DNA of 64,000 nt from IMG/VR virus record IMGVR_UViG_3300036652_000269, positions 25,279 through 89,278 of that record. One strand, 5' to 3'. The notes beneath the pieces are model-generated. The model was not told the origin of the DNA. It made no database searches and was given only the letters and a program-made list of their open reading frames with translations. The position numbers and the translations under genes are program-made. Origin of the DNA: a virus. This document shows positions 2,565-33,417 of this stretch, piece by piece; position 1 is the first letter of the stretch; the number at the start of each line of letters is the position of its first letter.

Positions 2565-4025
2565 CTACATGCCCGACGAGAACCCGACCTTGGTGATGTT
2601 GACGTTGATGGTTGCACCGGTCGGACTGACACGCACGGAAAGCCGTGCGTTCACCTGGTTGTTGCCCAGGCTGATGACCGAGTTGACGGACGGACCCGTG
2701 TCCACCTTGTAGCCGGGGTCCACCAACCTGCCGTTGCTGTCGTACATCGCGTACAGCCCACCCGCGTCGGCCAACGGCTTGGCGATACCGATCAGGCTGC
2801 CCGCCACCTTCGAGAGCAGCTGGCCTTTCGCATCGATAGGTGCGAAGACGTACTGTTCGAGTTCCGCGACTGCCTGGACGGCCAGGTCGTTCAGCACATC
2901 TCGGGCAGACAAGAACTGGTAGTTGATGGCGTCACCGGAAAGCGAACGCCAGCCGTACAACCGGATGCTGTTGGCGATGCGACGGATGACGCTGACACCA
3001 GCCCCGTCCAAGGAGTTGCCAGTGGTGCTGTCGTAGTACGTGGTCAGGCCGGTGATCGTGTCTGCCACCGCGATCTGGCCAGCCGGTGCACGCCACGGAC
3101 CAGCGGCGTCGATGGCACGGGCCCGAACAGCTGCCACGTAGCCCTCGGGCGGGATGGTGTAGATACCCAACCCGCCATCGCTGACCTGCACCCAGGGGGC
3201 GAACAAACCGGCGTACTCGGCGTTGGCCACTGCCGTGACAGCAGCGGCCGCGGTGGTCAGGTCGGACTGGGTTGCCGCCGACGTGTGCGACAGCAAGGCG
3301 ATCCGGTTGTTGGCCGCTGCGTGGGTGACGAGACCTGCGTGCACTGCCGTGCCCATGCCGGGGATGGCCACTGCACCATCACCCAGGTCCGGGGTGAACA
3401 ACGCCAGTGCGGCGGTGTAGTCGGAAGCGGTCAAGTCAGCACGGTCATCCGTACCGGCACTGAGGCTGAACGTTCCGGTAGCCGGAAGGTTGGCCGGTGC
3501 AGCGGTCGCACTGCCCATGTCCGTCATGGCCACCAGGGAGCTGTTCTGGAACGCGGTCACGATGGCAGCCGGGGTAGCCAGGTTGTCGAAGTATTCGACA
3601 ACTGAGTTGTCCGCCAGTGCCACCGTCACCTTCACCGTGTTGGCGATGGTACCCGCTGCAACTGTCACCTTGACATGGCTGGACCAGGAACCGGCGGACA
3701 GGGCGTCCACCTTGACGGTCGCTGCGGGTGCACCACCCGTGTCGTCCAGAGTCACCGTGCCCTTGGTGGCCGTGCTGCCGACGACACGTGCGACGTAGCA
3801 CTGCACGCCGCCTTCATCGAAGTACAGCTTCACGGTGTCGTACAGGTAGCCGTAGGACTGACGAGTGCCGAAATACTTGGCGTAATCGGCCATCCCCGAC
3901 AGCAACACTGCCTTGGTCGTTAGGCCACGTTCGGCCATTCCGACAACGAAGAGTTGGCCAGAAGCAGCCCGGAGAGGCGTGCTCGGGCCACTCCGCGCTG
4001 CCGTGGTCACACTTGTGCCTGGCAT
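2565..4025 (-). CDS. Tail sheath protein (contractile tail)
   Basis: A 486-residue protein with the features of phage tail sheath subunits. The N-terminus has G-Q-L-F-V-V-G-M-A-E-R-G, followed by V-K-L-Y-F-D-E-G-G-V-Q-C-Y-V-A-R-V-V-G, the usual sheath N-terminal motif. A central variable domain rich in Ala, Thr and Val follows. The C-terminal domain begins near D-G-A-G-V-S-V-I-R-R-I and contains N-Y-Q-F-L-S-A-R-D-V-L. Sheath subunits polymerise around the tube and contract to drive DNA delivery. This gene is the main evidence that the phage is a myovirus. Start ATG at 4025 follows AGGAAGG. Confidence 0.92.
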   Translation of the reverse strand: MPGTSVTTAARSGPSTPLRAASGQLFVVGMAERGLTTKAVLLSGMADYAKYFGTRQSYGYLYDTVKLYFDEGGVQCYVARVVGSTATKGTVTLDDTGGAPAATVKVDALSAGSWSSHVKVTVAAGTIANTVKVTVALADNSVVEYFDNLATPAAIVTAFQNSSLVAMTDMGSATAAPANLPATGTFSLSAGTDDRADLTASDYTAALALFTPDLGDGAVAIPGMGTAVHAGLVTHAAANNRIALLSHTSAATQSDLTTAAAAVTAVANAEYAGLFAPWVQVSDGGLGIYTIPPEGYVAAVRARAIDAAGPWRAPAGQIAVADTITGLTTYYDSTTGNSLDGAGVSVIRRIANSIRLYGWRSLSGDAINYQFLSARDVLNDLAVQAVAELEQYVFAPIDAKGQLLSKVAGSLIGIAKPLADAGGLYAMYDSNGRLVDPGYKVDTGPSVNSVISLGNNQVNARLSVRVSPTGATINVNITKVGFSSGM

Positions 4026-6912: not shown

Positions 6913-8262
6913 TTAGAACGTGCCGACGACGAAGGACTCCGGACGCTTGACGGCGAGGGCAATACGCTCTTCGACCAGCACCGCGATGGCGTTGCGGACG
7001 AAGAAGTCGGCGTGCTGCTCTGCGATCCGGACGTTGGCCTGCTCGCGGTCGTAGACCTGAGCGCCCAGACCGAACGCACCGGTAAGCCAGGTGCCTTCGT
7101 TCATGGCCGGGGTCTCAACAACGGGCTGACGCCAGACCTGCGCCTGGGCACCGATGGCGATGTTGGTGAACAGCATGTACTGGCCGTCACCGCCGTTGGT
7201 CGTGGTGCCCTTCTGAAGCTCGATGTCCTCCCAGTCGAACGGGTGGAGCACGAAGCCGGTGCCGGGGTAGTTGGCGATGACCGACAACGTGGCCGACCGG
7301 CGAAGGGCGTCCGACTTCAGGTCCCCGGCTGCACGGGTGTAGACCTGCACGCCAGGCGTGTTCAGCAGACCCAGCAGGTTGTTGCCGGTGCCGTCACCGT
7401 TGAGCAGCTGGTCGTCCTCTTCGAGCGCGAGGCCGTACAGCAACTCGTTGTTGATGATGGACTGCAACTGCGGCACGTCGCTGATGACGTTGCGGTGGGC
7501 CGCTTCCCAGTGCGCGATGGTGCGGACCGGGGCCTGCGCAGTGTCGAACTGAAGGCTGGACTTCGGCTTGGGGCCGAAGACAGCGACCGAGTTCTCGACG
7601 GCACGGTCAGCGACGGCCTGGGCGTTGCCGTTGCCGTTGTTCTCCGCGAACCCGATGACCCGGAAGAAGTCGATCAGGTTGGCCGACGTGGTGGCGACCG
7701 GGAAGAGGTCACGCACCCGGTAGGTGCGCTGGCCACGCGGGACGATGGGGTCGAACTGGATCGGGCCCCAGCCCTGCGGGTTCACCGTGTCCGGGACCAT
7801 CTGCCCGAACACGTCCTTGGTGCCGTAGCCACCGTTGCCGATGATCCGGCCGTCGATGTCGAACGGAGCGTCCATGCTGGTTTTGCCGGCCTTGACCATG
7901 GCGTTGAACTGCTCGGACTCGGTGAACATCTGGCCGAACGACTTGCGCTGCTGCGGGACGTACAGCCGCTGTGACTGGGTACCGGCACTGGAAGCAGCTG
8001 CGGCCATGGCAGCACTGAAGCCCTCGGGCTCGGCACCGTACTTCTTGACTTCTTCGGTCAGCCGCTTCATGGCGATGAGCGACTTGATCTCCGTGCACTT
8101 GTCGTACGCGGCCTTGATCTGGTCGGCAGTGTCGCGGGAAAGCTCGACGTTCGCGCCATCGACCTTGACGCCCTTCGCCATGCCTTCTTCCACGATCTTC
8201 GCGTTCTGGGTCAGCGCGGACTCAAGGTCCTTGACGCTGATGTCAGCGAGGTCGGTGCTCAC
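6913..8262 (-). CDS. Major capsid protein (HK97 fold)
   Basis: A 449-residue protein starting at GTG 8262 with AGAAAGG upstream. Residues 1-90 are a charged helical N-terminal region resembling the delta/scaffold domain removed by the prohead protease. The rest matches phage capsid family proteins, with a strong G-D-G-T-G-N-N-L-L-G-L-L-N motif near residue 290 and a C-terminal A-D-F-F-V-R-N-A-I-A-V-L-V-E-E-R-I-A. It forms the icosahedral shell. It follows the prohead protease gene, separated by a 115-nt leader that could hold its own promoter, and a hairpin follows. Confidence 0.92.
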   Translation of the reverse strand: MSTDLADISVKDLESALTQNAKIVEEGMAKGVKVDGANVELSRDTADQIKAAYDKCTEIKSLIAMKRLTEEVKKYGAEPEGFSAAMAAAASSAGTQSQRLYVPQQRKSFGQMFTESEQFNAMVKAGKTSMDAPFDIDGRIIGNGGYGTKDVFGQMVPDTVNPQGWGPIQFDPIVPRGQRTYRVRDLFPVATTSANLIDFFRVIGFAENNGNGNAQAVADRAVENSVAVFGPKPKSSLQFDTAQAPVRTIAHWEAAHRNVISDVPQLQSIINNELLYGLALEEDDQLLNGDGTGNNLLGLLNTPGVQVYTRAAGDLKSDALRRSATLSVIANYPGTGFVLHPFDWEDIELQKGTTTNGGDGQYMLFTNIAIGAQAQVWRQPVVETPAMNEGTWLTGAFGLGAQVYDREQANVRIAEQHADFFVRNAIAVLVEERIALAVKRPESFVVGTF

Positions 8263-8377: not shown

Positions 8378-10540
8378 CTATTCCAACGACACACCCAACG
8401 AGGCCAGGTCGAAGGACTTGGTGTCGATGACAACCCGATCCGACTTGCCTTCGGTGTCATCGTCGCTGCCGCCGTCCATCCAGTCTTCGGGCAGCTTGCT
8501 TGTCAGATTGAGATCTTTGGCGCGCTTGATGATGAACTGCTTGGCAGCTTCTTCGTCACTGGCACGACCGATGGACTGGATGGCGTTGTCCAGGTCGTCT
8601 TCGTTCTCGATGGGGAAGCTGAAGCTGCCGTCCGGGTTCTTCAGGGCGTGACCCTGCTTGCCCAGTTCTTCCCGCTTGGCAGTCGTGAACTGCCGCTTGA
8701 TCTGGTAATCGATGTCGTAGTCCTTGACGGCCACTGTGTTCTCCCATGCCTTCGAGTCGGGAACCTTGTGCATGGCCTCCATGCGGGCCACGAAGTCAGC
8801 ACTGCTTTGCTTGATGGTGTTTGTCTTTCCGATACGTGCGATCCGCCGCTTCTTGTCCACGTTCCGGGCCTGACGCATCGCGGCCCAGTGCTGCGATCCC
8901 TGGTGTCGCATCGATGCGTAGATGTGTGCACTGTTCGGGTGCAACGTGGACACGTCCAACGTCTGCTTGGGAGTGAGCTTCAGCACGCCGTAGTTAATGC
9001 CCTGGGTCGGGTGCCCGACCAGACGCCCGTACTTGGCCACACCGGCTTCGGTACGCACCATGGCTTTCGATTCGACAACCATGTTGGGCGACCACGACTT
9101 GGCCGATTCACCGGACATGTCAATGTCACCACCCGACTCGCCTGCCTCGGGGTCCTGGTTGTCGTCCGCCTGGTCGATGGCCTTGGCGATGGCCTGTGCC
9201 ACACCCTTCAGGGCATCACTGCCGTCACCGGTTGCGCTGTCGATAGCCGCGTCGATGGCGTCCAGGATGTTGTCTGCCGCCTTTTCGATGGCTTCGGGGT
9301 CGTCACCGATGATGGCGTGGTCGAAGTTCTGTGCCATCGGTGCCAGCTGGTGCAGGACGTCGGGTTCGATGTCATCTTGATACCCGTCAAGCACCTGCAC
9401 GATGCTGACCGGCTCGTTGTCAGCCGATTCGTCGTCGTCCCCGGTGCCACTGTCTGCGCTGTCCGCTTCCCCGGCCTTTTCACGAGCATCGTTGCTGGCG
9501 TCTTCCAGCGGGTCACGCGGCTGCGGTGGCGGGTTGAAAGGGTTGGACGGCATCGGCAACGATGACCCACCCGTAGGGCCAGCAGGGGCAGCCTTTTCGC
9601 TGATGGTGTCTTCGTTCATCGGGTCCTTGGGCCCGTTCGGGTTCTTGCGAGGCTCTTCACCCGTCATCGCGTACAGCAGTTCCCCGATGGCGTCCTGCAC
9701 CTTGCGCACCAGGTCCAGGTTGGACGCACTGATGCTGAACACGCCATCACCCTGCGGGTACTCGTCCGGGGTTTCCAACGCCTTGTGTTCGCTGTCGTCT
9801 TCGTCATCGAACAGTTCGCCGTCTTCGTCGCCTTCCCCTTCGCCGGTCCCGTCATCGTCGTCCGTGATGTCGGTACCTTCGTGGGTCTCGGCTTCGTCTT
9901 CGGCTTCGTCGTCGTCAGTGTCGTCGGGCACCTTGGTGGCCGACATCGCTTTGACTTCCTGCATGAAGGCATCGGGAGTGGTCCCGAAGAAGTCCTTGAA
10001 CTGGACCCAGGCTTCCTGTGCCGACTTCACCGATTCGGTACGGGCAGCTGACATGGCACCGAACAGCACCGGGCTGTACTCGAACAGGTCGAGGTAGTCG
10101 ATGGTACGGATGCCCTTTTCCTGGGTGGCCCCACCGACCGGGACGTTGTAGCCGATGGACCACTCCTGCTGGTCCCCGAAGAACTTCACGTCTTCGTAGG
10201 CTTCCCGGCCCCGCTGTGTGTTCAGGTTGAACTGCATCTTGACCTGAAGGGCACCGGCAGCCTTGGGCCACGGTGAACCATCCGGCAGAGTCGTTGGCAG
10301 TGCAGGATCGCCAGGCATCAGTTCCTTGATTTCCAAGGTCTTACTGATGCTCTTCTCCCACGAGTGGTGCCAGACGCCCTTGGGAATGCGCTTCTGCAAC
10401 GTCTTGGTGTACGCACCAGGCTTGATGATGTCGGACACGTTGTCCACGATGCCTGTCACACTGACAAGCGCAGTGACCACACCCGCGCCGTCGTCTGCTT
10501 TGACGCCGGTAACACCTACCGACTTGTACTGAAGCTCCAT
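8378..10540 (-). CDS. Prohead protease fused to acidic scaffold-like region
   Basis: A 720-residue protein; typical HK97 prohead proteases are about 200-250. Residues 1-190 match the U35 protease fold: N-V-S-D-I-I-K-P-G-A-Y with G-V-W-H-H-S-W (His58/59, candidate catalytic) and Q-E-W-S-I-G-Y-N-V (Ser128, candidate nucleophile). A very acidic Asp/Glu-rich and Pro/Ala-rich segment follows (about 210-520). A C-terminal module (about 650-705) reads F-S-F-P-I-E-N-E-D-D-L-D-N-A-I-Q-S-I-G-R and K-D-L-N-L-T-S-K-L-P-E-D-W, a domain seen in several phage head-maturation proteins. The fusion could combine protease and scaffold roles for capsid assembly. Confidence 0.85.
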   Translation of the reverse strand: MELQYKSVGVTGVKADDGAGVVTALVSVTGIVDNVSDIIKPGAYTKTLQKRIPKGVWHHSWEKSISKTLEIKELMPGDPALPTTLPDGSPWPKAAGALQVKMQFNLNTQRGREAYEDVKFFGDQQEWSIGYNVPVGGATQEKGIRTIDYLDLFEYSPVLFGAMSAARTESVKSAQEAWVQFKDFFGTTPDAFMQEVKAMSATKVPDDTDDDEAEDEAETHEGTDITDDDDGTGEGEGDEDGELFDDEDDSEHKALETPDEYPQGDGVFSISASNLDLVRKVQDAIGELLYAMTGEEPRKNPNGPKDPMNEDTISEKAAPAGPTGGSSLPMPSNPFNPPPQPRDPLEDASNDAREKAGEADSADSGTGDDDESADNEPVSIVQVLDGYQDDIEPDVLHQLAPMAQNFDHAIIGDDPEAIEKAADNILDAIDAAIDSATGDGSDALKGVAQAIAKAIDQADDNQDPEAGESGGDIDMSGESAKSWSPNMVVESKAMVRTEAGVAKYGRLVGHPTQGINYGVLKLTPKQTLDVSTLHPNSAHIYASMRHQGSQHWAAMRQARNVDKKRRIARIGKTNTIKQSSADFVARMEAMHKVPDSKAWENTVAVKDYDIDYQIKRQFTTAKREELGKQGHALKNPDGSFSFPIENEDDLDNAIQSIGRASDEEAAKQFIIKRAKDLNLTSKLPEDWMDGGSDDDTEGKSDRVVIDTKSFDLASLGVSLE

Positions 10541-12962: not shown

Positions 12963-14789
12963 TTACCTCTTCTGGGGTGGGCCCATGATGCCGGGTGGCA
13001 CGGGCTTCGGGAACGCTACACGTTGGCTGGCAGTGGCACCTCGTTCAGTACCACGCTTTGGCTTTGTCTTCAAGACAGACGCGATAAAAGCAGGCGTATA
13101 CCACGCTGGCTTGGCCGCCTTCAGTCCTGTGCCTTCGTGCATCGGCTTGTCAGAACGAAGTTTGTTGCACCCAGAACACGCCGGGACGATGTTGTTGGTT
13201 CGGTACTTGCCACCCAGGTTGGTGGTGATGATCTTGTCTTGCTCAAACATCGGTAACTTGCCCTTGTTGTGCCACGACATCTTGCACCCGCAATAGACAC
13301 AGGGCACGTAACCCTTGTCCTTGCCCTTGGCGTCCACCCCACCGAACTCGACATAGACCGCCCAGTTGCGATTGTCCCGGTCCAGGTTGTTTCCACGCAG
13401 GTTGCGGAAGGCTTCACCGCCAGCAGCGATTCGTGCCTTGTTGTCAGCTATCTCGATAGGCGTCGGCTGCGGGATAGCTTTGGCCTTGGCAATAGCTTGC
13501 TTCTGCGCTCGCTTCAGTTCGGCGTTGGACACATGTTCGTGCACCACGTCCTTTTCGCTGCGGTGTACCCCAGTGCCTGTCGTTTCGATATGCGTGTACT
13601 TGGTCTTGCCCAATGCAGATCGAGCGGCCCCAAACGCCGACCACCTACCATGGTCATCGCGTAGTTCGGCAGGATCGAACTTCTTACCTTCTTGTGTTTC
13701 GACAATCGGACCGTGGTAGCCGTACTCACTGATGGAGTTGCCATCGGTGTACAGATGCTTGGCCTTGACTGTCGCACTGATAACCGGCAGGTCTTTTTCC
13801 GGGTCAGTGGGGTGCAGCCCGTGTTGCCGGGCGTAGGCAGGGTGTACAGCAACCCAGTCACCAGGGTTGATCTGTCGGACTCCATGCGGGACGGACCGAT
13901 AGATGGTGACATCGGCTTCCGGGTTGCCACGAACCTGTTGTGCTACCTGCATCCCGTACGGGTCGTGTGCCTCGTCGTGGATGTAGAAATGCGGGTTGGT
14001 ATAGACGTCGTCTGGATAGACGCCGTTCTGCGTCAGGTCATGGATCGGGGCATCGTTCTTGTTCGGTGCTGTATGTAGCCCCCGATAGTCGGTGGTTTCC
14101 TGCTTCAGTACCTCGTACGCCTTGCGATACGGGTCCAGTGACGGATCGTTGTCGCCTTCGATCCATTGATATTCCGACATGGGGTCACTGGACTGCTTCA
14201 TGTAGTCGTAAGCCGAGTGCCATGGTTCGTGGATGGCCACGATCTGGCTGGGCTTCACGTCGCCTTTCATGATGACATGGTGGTGACCCTGTTGCCACTC
14301 ATCCAACAACTGGTTACCGGCCAATGACGACTGCGGGTGTTCGGCCCGCTGGCTGATTTCGTCAGGGTGGGCGTGGAACTCGACTACCGCACGCTTGGCG
14401 TGGGCATCCATTTTGGGCATGTATGAAGATGCCCAGACACCTGCTGACGGTTCGTTCCCTGCCCCTAGACCACCATCACCATGAGCATGGCTTTCCAACA
14501 ACCCATGTTGCCTTATCGAATCGACATTTTCGGTAGACGTGTAGTGGAACAGCCTGACGTGCCCTGCCGGGATCGCAGCCCACCGGCCATGCAGGCCACG
14601 GGCTTCGGCAGGGTCGAAAACCTTGGCCTCTAGACGGGCTGTACGGCCCGCTGCCGGGTCAATGGGCTGCCAGACGGGTGCTGGCCCAGCCAGCCCACCC
14701 AAAGCCTTCAGAAAGACGTTCAGCGCAGCTTTGACCTGGACCTCCTGGGCACGAGCCCTGATCCGGTCGCTGATGATCACTTGACCCAC
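12963..14789 (-). CDS. ADP-ribosyltransferase-like and HNH multidomain protein
   Basis: A 608-residue protein (GTG 14789; a second GTG at 14780 forms a GTGA overlap and may be the true start). Order: shared motif F-D-P-A-E-A-R-x3-G-R-W at 58-70; an ART-like segment (V-R-L-F-H-Y-T-S-T-E-N-V-D-S-I, 78-185); a second, clearer ART domain (T-I-Y-R298-S-V-P, I-N-P-G-D-W-V, I-S-E355-Y-G-Y, 290-360); the motif again at 371-383; and a C-terminal HNH domain (C497-x2-C500, E-Q-D518-K, N533-I-V-P-A-C538-x2-C541-N). The HNH carries D-K where D-H is usual, a variant seen in actinophage HNH proteins. I infer a virion-packaged effector or DNA-handling protein; the catalytic roles are untested. Confidence 0.7.
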   Translation of the reverse strand: MGQVIISDRIRARAQEVQVKAALNVFLKALGGLAGPAPVWQPIDPAAGRTARLEAKVFDPAEARGLHGRWAAIPAGHVRLFHYTSTENVDSIRQHGLLESHAHGDGGLGAGNEPSAGVWASSYMPKMDAHAKRAVVEFHAHPDEISQRAEHPQSSLAGNQLLDEWQQGHHHVIMKGDVKPSQIVAIHEPWHSAYDYMKQSSDPMSEYQWIEGDNDPSLDPYRKAYEVLKQETTDYRGLHTAPNKNDAPIHDLTQNGVYPDDVYTNPHFYIHDEAHDPYGMQVAQQVRGNPEADVTIYRSVPHGVRQINPGDWVAVHPAYARQHGLHPTDPEKDLPVISATVKAKHLYTDGNSISEYGYHGPIVETQEGKKFDPAELRDDHGRWSAFGAARSALGKTKYTHIETTGTGVHRSEKDVVHEHVSNAELKRAQKQAIAKAKAIPQPTPIEIADNKARIAAGGEAFRNLRGNNLDRDNRNWAVYVEFGGVDAKGKDKGYVPCVYCGCKMSWHNKGKLPMFEQDKIITTNLGGKYRTNNIVPACSGCNKLRSDKPMHEGTGLKAAKPAWYTPAFIASVLKTKPKRGTERGATASQRVAFPKPVPPGIMGPPQKR

Positions 14790-17199: not shown

Positions 17200-17245
17200 C
17201 ACACCCGTGCCTGTACGGGCTATCAGCCTGACAGACACGGGTGTG
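17200..17245 (-). terminator. Intergenic hairpin
   Basis: A 14-bp inverted repeat with one G-U type mismatch (17200-17213 with 17232-17245) fills the gap between the genes at 17274-17726 and 14777-17179. It is not followed by a U-tract, so I read it as a processing or attenuation hairpin. Confidence 0.4.
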
Positions 17246-18240: not shown

Positions 18241-18615
18241 TCACGCTTTCTTCAGGTAGACAGTGCCGAACAACAGGTCGGCGTTCCCGTCCGTGGCACT
18301 GGTGATGGCCAAGCCCCAGGACGAACACTGCACTCCGATTGTCTGGACGACAGACTTCGGCAACTTCAGCAACACGTCACCTTCGGCCAGGCCGTCCGGA
18401 TTCCCGACCGCAGACATGTCACTGAAGTATTGCGACAGATCGAGGATGATGTCCGGTGACCCGCTGGACAGCTTGATTTTCGAAACGAAAGTGTACGGCG
18501 TCACGTCGAACGGCTGCCCGTTGACCACGATGTTCCACTTGCCCCAGAAGTCGGTGGACTCGTCCAGGTACAGGTCGAACTTCTGGGCGTCAATGATGCT
18601 GCTGTTGACGATCAC
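18241..18615 (-). CDS. Small beta-rich virion-region protein
   Basis: A 124-residue protein coupled to the upstream gene by a 4-nt overlap. Short strands dominate (F-D-L-Y-L-D-E-S-T-D-F-W-G-K-W and Y-T-F-V-S-K-I-K-L). The layout resembles small beta-sandwich proteins found next to fibre genes in actinophages, but I do not recognise a specific family. Likely a baseplate, fibre or head-fibre accessory. Confidence 0.6.
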   Translation of the reverse strand: MIVNSSIIDAQKFDLYLDESTDFWGKWNIVVNGQPFDVTPYTFVSKIKLSSGSPDIILDLSQYFSDMSAVGNPDGLAEGDVLLKLPKSVVQTIGVQCSSWGLAITSATDGNADLLFGTVYLKKA

Positions 18616-20111
18616 GTCAGACTCCCTCGATGGGCACGGTCAACGGCTTCCTGCACTTCATCTTTCGACAGCTTGCGACGACGCTGGGGCTTCCCGGACA
18701 ACGGGGCCACCACTATGGGGAGTTGTCCGGACGGCATCCCGGATGGGCTGATGGGTCCGCCACCGAATACGTCCTTGAAGTCGTCCCCGTCCGCACTACC
18801 ACCGCCCGCACCATCGATCCAGCCGTCACTGCCGAAGCTGATGCCACCATCGGCCCCACCACTGGGTTCGAGGTCGTCACCTTCCGACGAGTAGCTGCTG
18901 TCGTTGCAGTAGGTGCCCAGCGGCTGTTCTTGTCCGCAGATCAAACAGCGAGGGTGCCCGTTCGGGTGTGTCCATGCGGCCGGGGTGAAAGCGTGCTTGC
19001 CCTTCGCCTTTGCGGTCTGCTTGTTCTTCTTGATGAGTTCGGTTTCCTCGTCCGCCGTGATCCCGGTCTGGGCGGACATCGCGGATGACAGGTCCTTGTG
19101 CCGCCTGTCTTCTTGATAACCAAGTTGGGCAATCCGCTTACGGCGTTCCTCGCGCTGGTGTTCCAGGAACTGGCCTGCCGTCATAGCCGGGGTGCCAGCG
19201 GCCCTGTAGCGGTCGCTGCGGCCCTGGGGCTTCTTGCTGGCCACTTCCATGGCACGTTCGATCTGGGCAGCCCAGCGACCACCACGGCCACGTGGCTCGG
19301 CGGGGTTGAACGACTTGTCTTCCGTCGTTTGCCCGAAAGGGATGTCCACCCGGTTCGAGCCATGTACGACCGACAGATGGCTGAAGGTCACCTGCCGAGG
19401 TTGCCACCTGTTGATCGGCTGGTCGTCGGTCGGGTCCAGGTAGGCCAAGGTCATGTGCGGGGAATAGCCGTGACTACTGACTGGCTCGTATTTTCTGTCT
19501 GTCAGAAAGGCTTGGGTGACAACCTGTCGCAACCGTTCGACTTCCGGCGCATCGACGTTGACCACCAGCGGGTCCTGGCCACCTTCGTCAGAATCCTCAC
19601 CACTGAACCGGGTGATGCCGTTCAGCTTCGCAGTGATCGGGGCGAACTGGGAAGCGACTTTCTTCCCGATATTCACCAACTCTTTCTGGGTTCCGGCCAC
19701 ATCGCTGCCGACCTTGCCCAGATACAGCACCGTGCAGTGCAGGTCGTCGGGGTACAGCCCGTCCGGTAGAGCGATCTGTTGGGCATCGCCGGGACTGGGG
19801 TGCAGGGCTACCATGACGCCGGTCGAATAGTCCGGGCCAGGTGCCAGCTTCTTGGATTCCGTCTGCCAGATAGCAGCGGCTTCACGCATCAGGTCAGCGG
19901 AGAGGTTCTTGGCTTGCAGACAGTAGGCGGCAGCACCCAGCATGTCTGTCTTCATGATAGTTGCGACCTGCGACACTTTGGTCGCGTCGCTGCCGTCTGG
20001 CAGTTCGACAGGCAGCTGCTTGATCTGGCCTGCCTCGGGACGGGCTAGGCGGTCCTGCAATGCGGCCAGCATCCCCAGCATCTTGGCCGACACACGGATC
20101 GAGCCCGGCAC
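18612..20111 (-). CDS. 2H phosphoesterase-domain virion-region protein
   Basis: A 499-residue protein starting at GTG 20111 behind GAAAGGAC. Residues about 95-255 form a 2H phosphoesterase (LigT / cyclic phosphodiesterase-like) domain with two His-x-Thr motifs: L-H125-C-T127-V-L-Y-L and S-P-H219-M-T221-L-A-Y-L. A linker follows with the shared motif E264-D-K-S-F-N-P-A-E-P-R-x3-G-R-W280. Then come a basic helical region, a zinc-like C-L-I-C...C segment and a Gly/Asp-rich C-terminus. 2H enzymes hydrolyse cyclic or 2'-5' nucleotides; some phage ones (T4 Acb1) defeat CBASS immunity. Its place among head genes suggests packaging in the virion. Confidence 0.75.
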   Translation of the reverse strand: MPGSIRVSAKMLGMLAALQDRLARPEAGQIKQLPVELPDGSDATKVSQVATIMKTDMLGAAAYCLQAKNLSADLMREAAAIWQTESKKLAPGPDYSTGVMVALHPSPGDAQQIALPDGLYPDDLHCTVLYLGKVGSDVAGTQKELVNIGKKVASQFAPITAKLNGITRFSGEDSDEGGQDPLVVNVDAPEVERLRQVVTQAFLTDRKYEPVSSHGYSPHMTLAYLDPTDDQPINRWQPRQVTFSHLSVVHGSNRVDIPFGQTTEDKSFNPAEPRGRGGRWAAQIERAMEVASKKPQGRSDRYRAAGTPAMTAGQFLEHQREERRKRIAQLGYQEDRRHKDLSSAMSAQTGITADEETELIKKNKQTAKAKGKHAFTPAAWTHPNGHPRCLICGQEQPLGTYCNDSSYSSEGDDLEPSGGADGGISFGSDGWIDGAGGGSADGDDFKDVFGGGPISPSGMPSGQLPIVVAPLSGKPQRRRKLSKDEVQEAVDRAHRGSLT

Positions 20112-20136: not shown

Positions 20137-20193
20137 GAAGGGGTACCTGCCGTTGAAAGACCGATGGTCGGAATCTCGGGCAGGTACCCCTTC
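20137..20193 (-). terminator. 15-bp perfect hairpin after IPT/TIG gene
   Basis: Arms GAAGGGGTACCTGCC (20137-20151) and GGCAGGTACCCCTTC (20179-20193) pair perfectly with a 27-nt loop, beginning 10 nt after the stop of the gene at 20203. The stem is strong, but only a short AT-rich run (CATCAGATTTATC) follows, so termination efficiency is uncertain. Confidence 0.55.
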
Positions 20194-21179: not shown

Positions 21180-23612
21180 CTAGCGCTTGGGAGCCCAGTT
21201 GCACCAGCACCGGCAGTTGATGATTTCGTCCAACGCACCTGCTGGGTCACCAGGGTAGAGCATCTTGGATTCTCCGACAGTGAAACGGTCGCCACCGGAA
21301 ACTGACTTCCCGTCCACCATGGCGTGGGTGTGCCGGACCCGCTCGTCGTCTTCGGTCCACCAGGTCTTCGTCATGTAGTCGGCAGCCGTTCCGTACACCG
21401 CCTGCCGGATGCCTTCAACCGTTGAAGTTGTCAGGTTGACAGCAAGGCCCGTCTTCCAGCTGGACCGAGCGCCCACCATCTTGGTGACCGCCTTCTTGAT
21501 TTCCGTCATGGACGCACCCTGGCTGTCCAGTTCGGCAATCTTGGCAGCGACCTTCTCGGACTGCCGCATGGCTGACGATTCCACGATGCCCAACGCCTGA
21601 CCCAGCACGTCGTACAGCTTGGCTTCCGGATCGATGAACAGCCGGGTCAGTGGAGTGTTGCCGAACTGGTTGATCCGCCCGCTGTCCGCCATCTGGTCGA
21701 TGACCCCGGCTTGGTGCAGGGATCGGGCAGCACGCTTGGCTTCGCGTTCGAGGATGGGCTTCAGCAAGGTGTGCATGTCGCCCACGATGTCCTGCGACCA
21801 TTCGTCACCAGCCACCACGTACATCGGGTCCAAAGCCTTCGTGCCGACTTCCTTGCCGTCCCAGTGCCGGGTGTGCTTCAGCACCTTGGCGTGGTCCAAC
21901 CGGGACAGGAAGACCTTCTCTTGGCGATGACCCCAGACCGTCAGCCCGGTTTCGACTGTCGCTTCGATAGTTGCACGCAGCTGAAGGTACGGGTGTTCCT
22001 TGTATTCGGGCTCGATGACTATTTCGGCGTCGATGATGTCCGGGTCATCACCCCCGGTGTCGGACAGCATCTTTCGTTCGATGAGTTCGTTCATTGATGC
22101 CTTGGCCGCAACCCGTTCCGCACGGGCTGCCACGACCCCCAGGGCTGCCTGCACCGGGTTGAAGGACGACGCCGGTCCACCGATGGGGGCCAACGGCTTC
22201 TGAGAGCCCCCAGGAAGGGCTGCCGGGGCTGCCGGGGCACCGGGAAGGGCCGGGGCCTGTGCAGGGGCACCAGGGGCACCCTGCGTCATCGACTGCCTGG
22301 CCAGGGCGGACTCGGCACGCATCATGCCAGCGATGGCTGCCGCTGCCAGGTTGGGCAGGTTGCGGATCGCTTTTTCGTCGTCCGGGTCCCGCGCGATGAC
22401 CACACCGTTGGGCAGGAACAGGGCACGGGTGCCAGGGATGTCCCAGGGCTTCTCCCCGACTGCCCGGAAGAAATCGTCCAGGGTGGCTGCCCCGGCTGCG
22501 ACTTCGGCCAGCTTGTTCGTGCGCCGGGTGTTGATGGCCCGTTGCAAGACTTCGACTCCGCTGAAGTCGTAGGCCAGGTTGATGTCGTCGTCCAGGTCAC
22601 CGGTCAGGGCGTTCAGCCCCATGGCCATGCCCTTGCAGTGGTCTATCTCGGTGTGCAGCCAGAACCCTTCGAGTTCTGCGTCCGCGTTGTCAAACGTACG
22701 ACCCGAGGCATTGCCCAGCACCGATTCCGCGACACCGAACGCCAGCAGCAGATCGTCCTTACCTGCCTTCAGCCCAGCCAGCCACTCGATGTCGCGGGGG
22801 GTGGCACCCAGGTCCTGCACGCTGATGTCGTCGGCTTCGATGACGATGGTCTGGCCAGCAGCCAACGGACCACCCGTGAACCGGTTCTTGATTTCCTGAG
22901 CATCACCGGGGCTGGTGTCACCCTTGATGCCGACCAACAGACCAGGGCGTCCGTCGTTGGTGATGAAGTTCCGGTTGAACAACCTGGCGAGCCAGTCGCT
23001 TTCCGCCACGATGCCTGCCGACACCATCGGGGTCAGTTGCTGGTACGGATCGGTCGGGTGCGGCATCAGCTTGATCCAGATCACCTGATCGGGAGCCAAC
23101 GTCTGCACCGTGTAGTCGGACCGGGTGACTTCATACCCCGACACGAAGGTGATCGGGTCTGGTATCGGGTTGACAGCTTCTGCGTTCAGCAGGTGCAGTT
23201 GCGACGGCCTGCCATCCCGACCTCGCACCACTTCGACAAAGGCACCTTTGCGGGACAGCAGCAGTTGGGTGGACAGCCGGTACCGGAACATCCAAGCTGT
23301 CTCGTAGATGTTGGCGTTCAGGTTCAGCAGCTTGTACAGCCGGGGGTCGTCAATGGTCGTCCCGGTTTCGTAGTCACCCCGGCGCAGGATGATGGGTAGC
23401 CCGGCCTGCTTGGACGCGATGGCGTTCACACACCGTGCCACCCAGATGACTTTCTCCAAGCCATCCTTGACAGATCGACCCAAGTCCCACGGACCAACCG
23501 GACCTGACGACCGGATCAGTGCACGGCCCAAGGCACCCGACGACCGTGCCACCGCACCAGCCGAGCTAGCCGTACGCCGGTTCAGCAGCGGTGCGAGGAA
23601 GTTGCCTGGCAT
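21180..23612 (-). CDS. Portal protein fused to MuF-type domain
   Basis: An 810-residue fusion. Residues about 40-430 are a phage portal domain with W-V-A-R-C-V-N-A-I-A, the E-S-D-W-L-A-R-L-F-N-R-N-F region, and G-V-A-E-S-V-L-G-N-A-S-G-R-T-F typical of HK97-type portals. A Pro/Ala-rich linker (about 440-500) follows. The C-terminal MuF-like domain (about 540-810) ends in W-W-T-E-D-D-E-R-V-R-H-T-H and D-E-I-I-N-C-R-C-W-C. The portal forms the DNA entry ring; MuF domains act in head morphogenesis and are often fused in actinophages. Start ATG 23612 follows AGGAGC. Confidence 0.9.
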   Translation of the reverse strand: MPGNFLAPLLNRRTASSAGAVARSSGALGRALIRSSGPVGPWDLGRSVKDGLEKVIWVARCVNAIASKQAGLPIILRRGDYETGTTIDDPRLYKLLNLNANIYETAWMFRYRLSTQLLLSRKGAFVEVVRGRDGRPSQLHLLNAEAVNPIPDPITFVSGYEVTRSDYTVQTLAPDQVIWIKLMPHPTDPYQQLTPMVSAGIVAESDWLARLFNRNFITNDGRPGLLVGIKGDTSPGDAQEIKNRFTGGPLAAGQTIVIEADDISVQDLGATPRDIEWLAGLKAGKDDLLLAFGVAESVLGNASGRTFDNADAELEGFWLHTEIDHCKGMAMGLNALTGDLDDDINLAYDFSGVEVLQRAINTRRTNKLAEVAAGAATLDDFFRAVGEKPWDIPGTRALFLPNGVVIARDPDDEKAIRNLPNLAAAAIAGMMRAESALARQSMTQGAPGAPAQAPALPGAPAAPAALPGGSQKPLAPIGGPASSFNPVQAALGVVAARAERVAAKASMNELIERKMLSDTGGDDPDIIDAEIVIEPEYKEHPYLQLRATIEATVETGLTVWGHRQEKVFLSRLDHAKVLKHTRHWDGKEVGTKALDPMYVVAGDEWSQDIVGDMHTLLKPILEREAKRAARSLHQAGVIDQMADSGRINQFGNTPLTRLFIDPEAKLYDVLGQALGIVESSAMRQSEKVAAKIAELDSQGASMTEIKKAVTKMVGARSSWKTGLAVNLTTSTVEGIRQAVYGTAADYMTKTWWTEDDERVRHTHAMVDGKSVSGGDRFTVGESKMLYPGDPAGALDEIINCRCWCNWAPKR

Positions 23613-25494: not shown

Positions 25495-26226
25495 TCAGCA
25501 ACCCCCTTCGACCATGGCCAAGATGGTGTCCGCGTGCTGAATGGCTGTCAGCACGATAGATGAAAACAGATGGTCCTTGAACTGCTGGTCCACCGGCAAC
25601 TGGTCGTAGGGCACCAGACACGGGTGGGTTTTCAACTCGGGGTCCTTGACCGGCCCGTACACCCAGCCCTGTTCTGTCTTGGTGTCGCACCACAGCTGGT
25701 GGGACTGTTCGGGAGTGTTCCCGTTCAGCACCCCACGTACGCCGATCCGCACGCTTTCCTGCATGGCCGGGTCCACGTCGTCCCAGTCCGCTGCCACGTC
25801 GATGCCGGACCACGGCTGCAACTGCTGAACACCTCTGTTGGCTGAATGACAAAAACGGGCAATCGCATCGATCACCAGGTTCTTGTCCGCAGTGGACATC
25901 GGGTCTTCGGCGTCGTGGTCTTCCTCCCGATCCACCTGCAACGCATCGGTAGGCATGTCGGGTGTCTTCACGATGTCCGGGTGCGCTTCCTGCCAGGCTA
26001 CGATCCGGGCAACGTGGGCGTTGAGGCCATCAATGATGTTCTGGTCCCGTTCGACGGTAGGCAAGTGGGCCACTGCTTCCTGGTAACCACGGATCGCGTG
26101 CAGGATGAGCTTGTCCTTGGCCCGAAACAGGATGACCGGTTCGTCTTCACCGATGGTGGTGGTGATGTGCTTGCGCTTGTGGGGCCAGTCCTGAACCCCC
26201 TGATAATCCGCACGTGCGTGCAACAT
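25495..26226 (-). CDS. RyR-domain protein
   Basis: A 243-residue protein whose C-terminal third (about 150-235) matches the RyR (ryanodine-receptor repeat) domain pattern: A-M-Q-E-S-V-R-I-G, T-K-T-E-Q-G-W-V-Y-G-P-V-K-D, K-T-H-P-C-L-V-P-Y-D-Q-L-P and Q-F-K-D-H-L-F. RyR domains in bacteria and phages are linked to nucleotide-derived ligand sensing or conflict systems, but no enzymatic activity is established. The N-terminal half is helical with no recognised domain. Overlap-free but only 1 nt from the next gene. Confidence 0.75.
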   Translation of the reverse strand: MLHARADYQGVQDWPHKRKHITTTIGEDEPVILFRAKDKLILHAIRGYQEAVAHLPTVERDQNIIDGLNAHVARIVAWQEAHPDIVKTPDMPTDALQVDREEDHDAEDPMSTADKNLVIDAIARFCHSANRGVQQLQPWSGIDVAADWDDVDPAMQESVRIGVRGVLNGNTPEQSHQLWCDTKTEQGWVYGPVKDPELKTHPCLVPYDQLPVDQQFKDHLFSSIVLTAIQHADTILAMVEGGC

Positions 26227-26611: not shown

Positions 26612-26921
26612 AACGATAGTTCCTAGCTGTTGTCTGACCGGCGAAGTCATCCTAGCCGGGCCAGGTCGGGTTGGTGCAATGGCCGGTAGCCCGGCTGTAC
26701 GGCACGCTGACGGGCTAACCGGACGGGTTGGCAGTCCAGGTCCGGATCGGGCTGATAATCTGCCTGCTGCGTTGCTGGGCGTTGTCTCCTGATTGGTTAG
26801 TCGTCCCGATCAGCTTGACCGTCAGCACGTGTGGTGCCCCGCACCTGTCTGCTGACCGGCAGATCACAGACAGCTGTGTGCGGGGCACCACTCATGTTCA
26901 CGCCCGGTTATGGACTGATAG
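26612..26921. other. 310-nt intergenic region with a long hairpin
   Basis: No supportable gene on either strand. Its lower-coordinate part is a featureless GC-rich stretch. The higher-coordinate part, next to the NlpC/P60-like gene, contains the long stem listed separately at 26831-26891. It is the longest clearly noncoding gap in the window, so it may hold a promoter for the RyR-gene block, but I see no confident boxes. Confidence 0.45.
26831..26891 (-). terminator. Long nested hairpin after NlpC/P60-like gene
   Basis: A perfect 14-bp outer stem (GTGGTGCCCCGCAC at 26831-26844 and GTGCGGGGCACCAC at 26878-26891) encloses a second 7-bp stem (CTGTCTG/CAGACAG). It begins 30 nt after the stop of the gene at 26922. 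There is no U-tract, so it may act as a transcript 3' barrier rather than a classical terminator. Confidence 0.5.
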
Positions 26922-30679: not shown

Positions 30680-32185
30680 CTAGGCCAGGATGCGGACCTT
30701 GCGACCGAAGGCCAGTTCCTTCAACGCTCCCGATGTTGCGTCCACCTGGTCGTCGTGCGCCCCGTTCGGGAACAATGCCGCTTCGTCCAGGAAGGCTCGG
30801 TTCCAGGTGGCTTTCTTGATGTAGCAGTTGCCTGCCTTGGCCATCGATGACAACGGCTGGGCACGCACCTTCTTGTCTCCGGTGGACCTGATCCCATCGA
30901 AGTTGAAGCCCACCAGGATGTTGCGCCGGTAGTGGCTGATGGCCATCACACCCGAGCTACCCGGTTCCTGTTCCATCCGGATCGGGATGTCGGGTCCGTC
31001 CATCATCGCGGTGTGCCGGATGATGCGTTCGGCTTCGGCTGGACCTCGGCGGAATCGCACGATGTCTTCGATGTAAAGGTTGCCGTCCAGCAATCGGCAC
31101 AGCGTCCCCACGGTCCAGTCGGGATCGTTCTTCTTGTCTTTCTTCTGCTCGGTTGCAGCCATGTCCCAGAACCGGACCAGCTTGCCACCCGCTGGCGTCA
31201 TGTCCAACGCGGTGAACCAGTGCCGCTGGAAGTAGTCACCTTCCTCGGTGACATCCCAGTCGCCGTTCAGCAGTCGTTCCTGGTCCACCGGGTTCAGGTG
31301 TTCCAGCGCTTCCCGGTAGCTGGCCTGGTCCAGTGATGGATTGTCAGAAAGCAAAGAGGGGACGAAGATCGCTTTTTCGTTCCGGGTGCGTTCATCGATG
31401 AACCGGTTCCGCACCCATTCGTGCCCGATGCCACCGGGGTTGGTGGCCGAACGCATCCTGAGCGGCAGATCGAAGATTGTCATTCCATCAGGGGCGGGCG
31501 GGTACTGGCCCAGCACCTGCTGGTCGGGGTAGGGCTCTTTGCAGTATTGCTTGCCTTCGGCGGTGGTGTGCTTGTAATAGACCCCGGTCATCGATCGATA
31601 CTGCCGAAGGTTGGTACGGCAGTTGAGGCAGTTGATCGCAGGCTTCCGCATCCGGCTGAACATGTAGGTGTACATGTCGGTATCGAACTGTGTCAGTTCG
31701 TCAAACCCGATGAACTGGAACTCCGCTGATTGGTAGCGGGTCTTGTCCCGGTTGTATTGCAGATAACCGAAGGTGATTCGAGCCCCCGACGGGAAGGTCC
31801 AGTACCGGCCCCCATCGTGCGACTTCGCATCTGTGCTTTGGAGCCACTGTCTGGCCCGGTCCATGATGGCACCCGGCAGCGCAAGGTCGGACCAGGTACG
31901 GCGCAGCAACAGAGCCGAATATCCCGGCACATCGACGTATTGCAACGCAGCCATCAACAGGGCGTCGCTCTTGCCCCCACCAGCCGCTCCACCGAAGCCG
32001 ACTTCCTTGGTGGTCAACGACAGGAAGACCTGCTGCTTGGGGTGCGGGATGTGCGGGATGTACTTGGTCAACCGAGGGATGACAGCCCGCTGAATCTTGT
32101 GCCGCTGTTCCGGGGTCAGTTCGGCCAGCTTCTTGGCCAGCACTCGGGTTTCTAGTGCTGTGCGTTCGGTCAGGGTCAGGGACAT
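30680..32185 (-). CDS. terL: Terminase large subunit
   Basis: A 501-residue packaging motor protein. Walker A is G66-A-A-G-G-G-K72-S73, and Walker B with catalytic acid is F-Q-F-I-G-F-D162-E163-L-T. The nuclease domain has W-D341-M-A-A-T-E, E405/E407 and H-D478-D479-Q-V-D482. A C-L-N-C (186-189) plus Cys215 cluster between ATPase and nuclease suggests a structural zinc site. The ATPase drives DNA translocation and the nuclease cuts concatemers. It is followed by the membrane protein and Rpf-like gene, not directly by the portal, an unusual insertion of some 7 kb. Confidence 0.93.
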   Translation of the reverse strand: MSLTLTERTALETRVLAKKLAELTPEQRHKIQRAVIPRLTKYIPHIPHPKQQVFLSLTTKEVGFGGAAGGGKSDALLMAALQYVDVPGYSALLLRRTWSDLALPGAIMDRARQWLQSTDAKSHDGGRYWTFPSGARITFGYLQYNRDKTRYQSAEFQFIGFDELTQFDTDMYTYMFSRMRKPAINCLNCRTNLRQYRSMTGVYYKHTTAEGKQYCKEPYPDQQVLGQYPPAPDGMTIFDLPLRMRSATNPGGIGHEWVRNRFIDERTRNEKAIFVPSLLSDNPSLDQASYREALEHLNPVDQERLLNGDWDVTEEGDYFQRHWFTALDMTPAGGKLVRFWDMAATEQKKDKKNDPDWTVGTLCRLLDGNLYIEDIVRFRRGPAEAERIIRHTAMMDGPDIPIRMEQEPGSSGVMAISHYRRNILVGFNFDGIRSTGDKKVRAQPLSSMAKAGNCYIKKATWNRAFLDEAALFPNGAHDDQVDATSGALKELAFGRKVRILA

Positions 32186-33283: not shown

Positions 33284-33417
33284 GGTCGGCTGCCTTTTGG
33301 TTCGGTTGCTCTGTACCTGTTGTACGGATGCCGGTGACAGCCGGGCTGCGGAATCCAGTGTTAGGTCGCAGGCCAGTCCGGACAACCACAACCCGGCTGT
33401 CACTCTGAAAGGCTAGC

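What the first reader, a model, noticed from the sequence alone, without database searches (positions are those of the whole stretch)
18612..20111. Virion-region 2H phosphoesterase, possible anti-CBASS or RNA-repair enzyme
Two His-x-Thr motifs (H125/T127, H219/T221) 94 residues apart define a 2H phosphoesterase. T4 Acb1, of the same superfamily, degrades cyclic nucleotides and blocks CBASS. Here the domain is embedded in a head-region protein with the shared motif, so it could be pre-loaded and act immediately on entry. This is an inference from superfamily and position; 2'-5' or tRNA-repair activities are equally possible.
Basis: partly seen in the sequence, partly recalled or inferred. Interest (0 to 1): 0.75.

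Follow-up and report, generated by a model that had tools for sequence, protein, structure and literature searches.

The report
Head-gene-cluster 2H phosphoesterase, LigT-type
This phage gene, sitting among the genes that build the virus head, encodes a conserved, probably active enzyme of the 2H phosphoesterase family that may be carried into the cell with the viral DNA; it is a new member of a group already known and already suspected of blunting host defences, and its substrate is unknown.

Summary
The 499-aa protein (minus strand, GTG at 20111) has H125xT127 and H219xT221 in a 2H phosphoesterase domain: Pfam 2_5_RNA_ligase2 E 6.5e-10; AlphaFold2 pLDDT 91.5; best solved matches LigT/ThpR. 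In 78 diverse homologues the tetrad is essentially invariant, so the domain is very probably catalytic. It lies between portal-MuF and the capsid protease. Its nearest complete relatives (Gordonia phages) run portal, 2H, VIP2-like ART. In 57 of 80 non-redundant homologous loci the 2H is fused to, or within 4 kb of, head or terminase genes.

Virion packaging and nucleotide-signal degradation were already proposed for portal/MuF-fused 2H domains (Iyer 2017; 2022). Nothing singles out CBASS: the protein misses Pfam's Acb1 model and is nearer LigT/ThpR than Acb1 by sequence and fold score. RNA repair is weakened: no RNA ligase, RtcB, KptA or tRNA gene was found in the 89-kb record, nor RNA ligase or RtcB in six complete relatives; the database label "RNA ligase" looks like a misnomer. 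New detail: a conserved C-terminal tail (KDVFGGG, basic patch, helix) in Gordonia-type orthologues, possibly a virion-docking element.

Verdict: new member of a known kind, substrate unresolved.

The parts
18612..20111 (-). 2H phosphoesterase gene, 499 aa, GTG start
   Evidence: ORF; AAGGA upstream of GTG; Pfam, PHROG
19854..19976 (-). N-terminal helical module, residues 46-86, shared with Gordonia-phage orthologues and L130, L146
   Evidence: alignment; confident helices; weak in leave-one-out profile
19326..19835 (-). 2H phosphoesterase domain, residues 93-262
19731..19739 (-). first HxT motif, H125-C126-T127
   Evidence: H 78/78, T 76/78 in homologues
19449..19457 (-). second HxT motif, H219-M220-T221
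   Evidence: H 78/78, T 78/78 in homologues; part of one search pattern
19272..19310 (-). FNPAEPRGRGGRW motif, residues 268-280, in a low-confidence linker
19005..19178 (-). predicted long helical stretch, residues 312-369, within the lineage-specific insertion
18615..18785 (-). C-terminal tail, residues 443-499: DFKDVFGGG, basic patch, terminal helix 483-497; possible docking element
20137..20193 (-). perfect 15-bp hairpin upstream of the start codon, possibly regulatory; not shown to belong to the gene
21180..23612 (-). portal-MuF gene upstream (context)

Best explanation
The gene encodes a catalytically competent, LigT/ThpR-like 2H phosphoesterase made with the late head proteins. It is most likely incorporated into the virion near the portal and released into the cell with the DNA. 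There it would act early, using the two-histidine, metal-independent chemistry of the superfamily on a small 2',5'-, 3',5'- or 2',3'-cyclic phosphodiester, most likely a nucleotide signal or an RNA end produced by host defence. Shown by computation: the fold, the conserved catalytic tetrad, and the head-cluster context and fusions in relatives. Inferred: virion incorporation, injection, substrate and counter-defence role. My estimates: active 2H enzyme about 0.9; virion-associated about 0.7; acting on a defence-related nucleotide about 0.45; on RNA ends or as an RNase about 0.35.
For: 2H family and fold. H125 is 78/78 and T127 76/78 although no search pattern contained them; G165, F169, D187, R195 and H214 are near-invariant. 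Portal, 2H, VIP2-like ART order in the nearest complete phages; portal beside 2H in GMA6, DalanDe and Cantare. Of 80 non-redundant homologous loci, 26 are fused to and 31 more lie within 4 kb of head or terminase genes. Of 73 ORFs scanned with Pfam, matches include Phage_portal 13, Peptidase_S78_2 10, Peptidase_S78 8, Phage_Mu_F 6, Mu-like_Pro 5, Portal_Mu 3. A conserved C-terminal tail separate from the catalytic domain. The same reading of MuF/portal-fused 2H domains is published (PMC5512222, PMC9503650).
Against: No virion proteomics was found for this or any close relative; the one 'phosphoesterase' I found reported in virions (Thermobifida phage P318) lies in that phage's replication cluster and was not shown to be a 2H protein. 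The protein has no portal or MuF domain itself. The substrate is not deducible from a 2H fold or sequence. No null rate for proximity to head genes was measured. A late-cluster position also fits an enzyme used only during assembly.
Confidence: 0.5

Rival explanations
1. An Acb1-like anti-CBASS nuclease: the enzyme cleaves host cyclic di- and trinucleotides and so keeps CBASS effectors from firing.
For: Same superfamily and catalytic tetrad; Foldseek matches Acb1 structures at E 8e-5 and 1.6e-4; 4 of 73 relatives weakly match the Acb1 Pfam model.
Against: P0001 itself has no Acb1 match at E up to 1; LigT/ThpR is much closer by profile and by hhalign coverage, 113 against 39 columns.
Confidence: 0.15
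2. An RNA-repair 2',3'-cyclic phosphodiesterase that heals tRNA or mRNA ends cut by host defence nucleases, before ligation.
For: Best profile and fold matches are LigT/ThpR RNA 2',3'-cyclic phosphodiesterases.
Against: No PF09414 ligase, RtcB or KptA in the record, no tRNA genes, no PF09414 or RtcB in six complete relatives; TIGR02258 cut-off missed. The record may be incomplete, PF09511 could not be judged, and host ligases could supply the second step.
Confidence: 0.15
3. A Usb1-like RNase or RNA-trimming enzyme injected for host takeover.
For: Foldseek matches Usb1 at about 1e-4; Iyer et al. 2017 offered this reading for MuF/portal-linked 2H domains; neighbours in relatives include ART and HNH genes.
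Against: No sequence evidence that separates it from the other 2H activities.
Confidence: 0.15
4. A head-assembly or structural protein in which the 2H fold is only a scaffold, without an enzymatic role.
For: Position among head genes, and frequent fusion to portal and protease domains.
Against: The catalytic tetrad is essentially invariant over 78 homologues at 20-38% identity to P0001.
Confidence: 0.05

Closest known systems
Portal-linked 'RNA ligase' proteins of Gordonia phages (GMA6, DalanDe, ChisanaKitsune, ScarletRaider)
   Same: 2H domain (30-39% identity), N-terminal helical module, C-terminal KDVF/KDVY tail, position just after portal-MuF
   Different: P0001 has a long extra insertion with the FNPAEPRGRGGRW motif, a predicted helical stretch, a CxxC and a disordered region; two small ORFs separate it from the portal and no ART gene directly follows it
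Polyvalent/MuF- or portal-fused 2H domains (Iyer et al. 2017, PMC5512222; 2022, PMC9503650)
   Same: 2H domain in a virion-gene context beside other effector-like genes; same proposed role
   Different: P0001 is a separate gene, not fused to MuF or portal
LigT/ThpR RNA 2',3'-cyclic phosphodiesterase (5ldm, 5h7e, 1iuh)
   Same: fold, HxT pair, best matches by profile and by Foldseek
   Different: below the NCBIfam ThpR cut-off (21.5 against 65.7 bits); extra modules; phage head context
Acb1 anti-CBASS nuclease (T4 57B; 7t26, 7t27, 9q2g)
   Same: superfamily and catalytic tetrad
   Different: no Acb1 Pfam match; only a partial profile alignment

Membership tests
2H phosphoesterase superfamily | two HxT/S motifs in a 2H fold | tested here: met
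   H125/T127 and H219/T221; pLDDT 91.5 model matching solved 2H enzymes
2H phosphoesterase superfamily | profile match above the curated cut-off | tested here: met
   PF13563 39.7 bits (cut-off 27), PF02834 24.2 bits (cut-off 23.3)
LigT/ThpR RNA 2',3'-cyclic phosphodiesterase (TIGR02258) | equivalog score above 65.7 bits | tested here: not met
   21.5 bits
LigT/ThpR RNA 2',3'-cyclic phosphodiesterase (TIGR02258) | 2',3'-cyclic phosphodiesterase activity | not testable with these tools
   needs a biochemical assay
Acb1 (PF23474) | match to the Acb1 profile | tested here: not met
   no match at E up to 1
Acb1 (PF23474) | base-stacking aromatics (Y12, W74, F107, W147 in FBB1 Acb1), E141 and C-terminal lid | tested here: inconclusive
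   features from PMC9117128; no superposition was available; the alignment columns show no obvious conserved lid after residue 262
Acb1 (PF23474) | cleavage of CBASS cyclic oligonucleotides | not testable with these tools
   needs a biochemical assay
Virion-packaged (polyvalent/MuF-type) effectors | gene located among head genes | tested here: met
   window map and relatives
Virion-packaged (polyvalent/MuF-type) effectors | fusion to a virion domain (MuF, portal, protease) | tested here: not met
   not in P0001, but in many homologues
Virion-packaged (polyvalent/MuF-type) effectors | presence in the virion and delivery into the cell | not testable with these tools
   needs virion proteomics and a delivery assay

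The most novel reading that the evidence does not exclude
The 2H protein is virion cargo loaded through a dedicated C-terminal docking tail (KDVFGGG, basic patch, helix), and the FDPxEPRDxxGRW motif that it shares with a neighbouring effector-like protein and with many phage head, ART and zeta-toxin proteins is part of a general cargo-loading or cargo-processing code for injected phage effectors.
Probability: 0.1. Interest if true: 0.75.

Novelty: new member of a known kind. Interest (0 to 1): 0.35.

Why it matters
If the protein enters with the DNA, it could act before any phage gene is expressed, the stage at which a nucleotide-signalling or RNA-cutting defence would be easiest to blunt. Many actinophage records call this protein 'RNA ligase', which appears to be a misnomer inherited from the LigT family name; correcting it would help annotation. 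The conserved tail gives a simple target for testing how phage heads load enzyme cargo, using Gordonia phages that have already been isolated.

Tried and rejected
A first viral-contig scan with the motif used a pattern one base short and was wasted. A single-sequence scan for relatives in viral contigs found none; an alignment-based scan found 194. phmmer against the PDB gave only chance matches. tblastn with a 22-residue motif consensus found nothing in phages or plasmids, probably a limit of the method for short queries. The virion-detected phosphoesterase of Thermobifida phage P318 was dropped as evidence: it lies in the replication cluster and no link to 2H proteins was shown. In leave-one-out profiles P0001's tail (E 0.62) and N-terminal module (E 21) are not significant over 28072 ORFs, though both match at the right place. 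The T4 Rnl1 family search was uninformative because no control genome rang. With my small reference set only 27 of 94 motif-bearing ORFs could be shown to be fused to or near head or terminase genes, so the motif as a head-cargo tag stays a lead.

Full report
What was checked. The finding covers window 18612-20111. The gene is on the minus strand, 499 aa, with an AAGGA just upstream of its GTG. The window is bases 25279-89278 of an 89278-base virus record. The two HxT motifs are at residues 125-127 and 219-221 as stated. Pfam gives 2_5_RNA_ligase2 (6.5e-10) and LigT_PEase (3.8e-5), both above cut-off; PHROGs gives 'RNA ligase' families to 2e-19; the ThpR equivalog model is matched far below its cut-off; PADLOC gives nothing.

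Context. Terminase 30680-32185, portal-MuF 21180-23612, 2H 18612-20111, a multi-domain HNH protein 12963-14789, S78 capsid protease 8378-10540, major capsid protein 6913-8262 and a tail sheath 2565-4025 are all on the same strand, so this is the late cluster of a myophage (inference from the sheath). The large terminase is 54-55% identical to those of Gordonia phages of the Chidieberevirus/Bendigovirus type and the portal 41-45%, so the host is probably an actinobacterium (inference).

Relatives. tblastn finds 283 phage records, mostly actinophages, annotated mainly 'RNA ligase' or capsid maturation/MuF proteins. In ChisanaKitsune and ScarletRaider the order is portal, small gene, 2H, VIP2-like ART, large gene (annotated HNH in one); in GMA6, DalanDe and Cantare the 2H is next to or one gene away from the portal. 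An alignment-based scan gave 194 viral relatives, 80 kept, and 21 loci in bacterial genomes or metagenome bins. After removing near-duplicates, 26 of 80 were fused to and 31 more lay within 4 kb of portal, MuF, protease, capsid or terminase genes. This is likely a lower bound, because only a handful of reference proteins was used; no null rate was computed. A Pfam scan of 73 ORFs independently shows fusions to portal, S78 peptidase, MuF and Mu-like protease domains.

Activity. Across 78 homologues H125 is 78/78, T127 76/78, H219 78/78 and T221 78/78, with G165, F169, D187, R195, H214, P218 and Y224 nearly invariant. The second motif was inside one of the two search patterns, so its invariance is biased; the first was not. 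This argues for an active enzyme.

Which kind of 2H. The domain model (pLDDT 91.5) matches E. coli LigT (8e-8), Deinococcus CPDase and Thermus TT0787 (1.5e-7), then 2',5'-phosphodiesterases of RNA viruses (6e-6 to 5e-5), Acb1 (8e-5 and 1.6e-4) and Usb1 (about 1e-4); TM-scores are all about 0.5-0.6 and do not separate functions. By profile the order is similar: ThpR-type 5.4e-12, Acb1 0.02. hhalign to E. coli ThpR covers 113 columns and to T4 Acb1 39. Acb1's substrate-binding residues (PMC9117128) could not be mapped without a superposition.

RNA repair. No RNA ligase (PF09414), RtcB or KptA was found in the record, no tRNA genes, and no PF09414 or RtcB in six complete relatives. The record may be incomplete, and PF09511 could not be judged.

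Other parts of the protein. The full-length model (mean pLDDT 72) gives a helical N-terminal module (46-86), the 2H domain, a low-confidence linker holding FNPAEPRGRGGRW, a helical stretch (312-369), a long low-confidence region (402-477) and a terminal helix (483-497). Gordonia-phage orthologues and L130 share the KDVF/KDVY tail and a basic patch; the background frequency of [KR]DV[FYW] in the ORF set is 2.1e-5 per residue. In leave-one-out profiles P0001's tail scores E 0.62 and its N-terminal module E 21 over 28072 ORFs, at the right places; that is suggestive for one pre-chosen protein, no more.

The motif. The consensus is FDPxEPRDexGRWTxGG. Among 59 non-redundant motif ORFs are ART, MuF, portal, S78 and zeta-toxin proteins, and one 2H protein. 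None of the ORFs found through the 2H search carries the strict motif; L156 has a near form just after its 2H domain.

Literature. Iyer et al. 2017 (PMC5512222) and 2022 (PMC9503650) already proposed that MuF/portal-fused 2H domains are packaged, injected and act on RNA or on nucleotide signals. I found no paper reporting such a protein in virions within the library searched.

Verdict. A real, probably active, probably virion-linked 2H phosphoesterase; a new member of a known kind; the specific anti-CBASS claim is possible but not favoured.

Noticed in passing
window 20137-20193 (-): A perfect 15-bp inverted repeat with a 27-nt loop ends about 26 nt before the 2H start codon; RNA fold -43.6 kcal/mol, z -7.7. 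Similar strong hairpins lie at 17200-17245, 26820-26902 and 33334-33403; no Rfam match.
   Followed up: partly
window 12963-14789 (-): A 608-aa protein with two copies of the FDPxExRxxxGRW motif, a region like 'ParB C-terminal domain' of PHROGs and an HNH domain; it looks like a polyvalent effector protein.
   Followed up: partly
window 25495-26226 (-): A RyR-domain protein (PF02026, E 3.9e-12) in the late cluster between terminase and portal.
   Followed up: no
viral-contig loci L012-L091: The FDPxEPRDxxGRW motif occurs, sometimes two or three times in one protein, in many phage proteins, among them ones with ART, MuF, portal, S78 and zeta-toxin domains; function unknown.
   Followed up: partly
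phage records such as L002, L004, L233: The 2H proteins are annotated 'RNA ligase', which appears to be a misnomer carried over from the LigT name.
   Followed up: partly
L231:3092-3911: In phage T4 the Acb1 gene (57B) lies right beside ipI, which encodes an internal virion protein.
   Followed up: no
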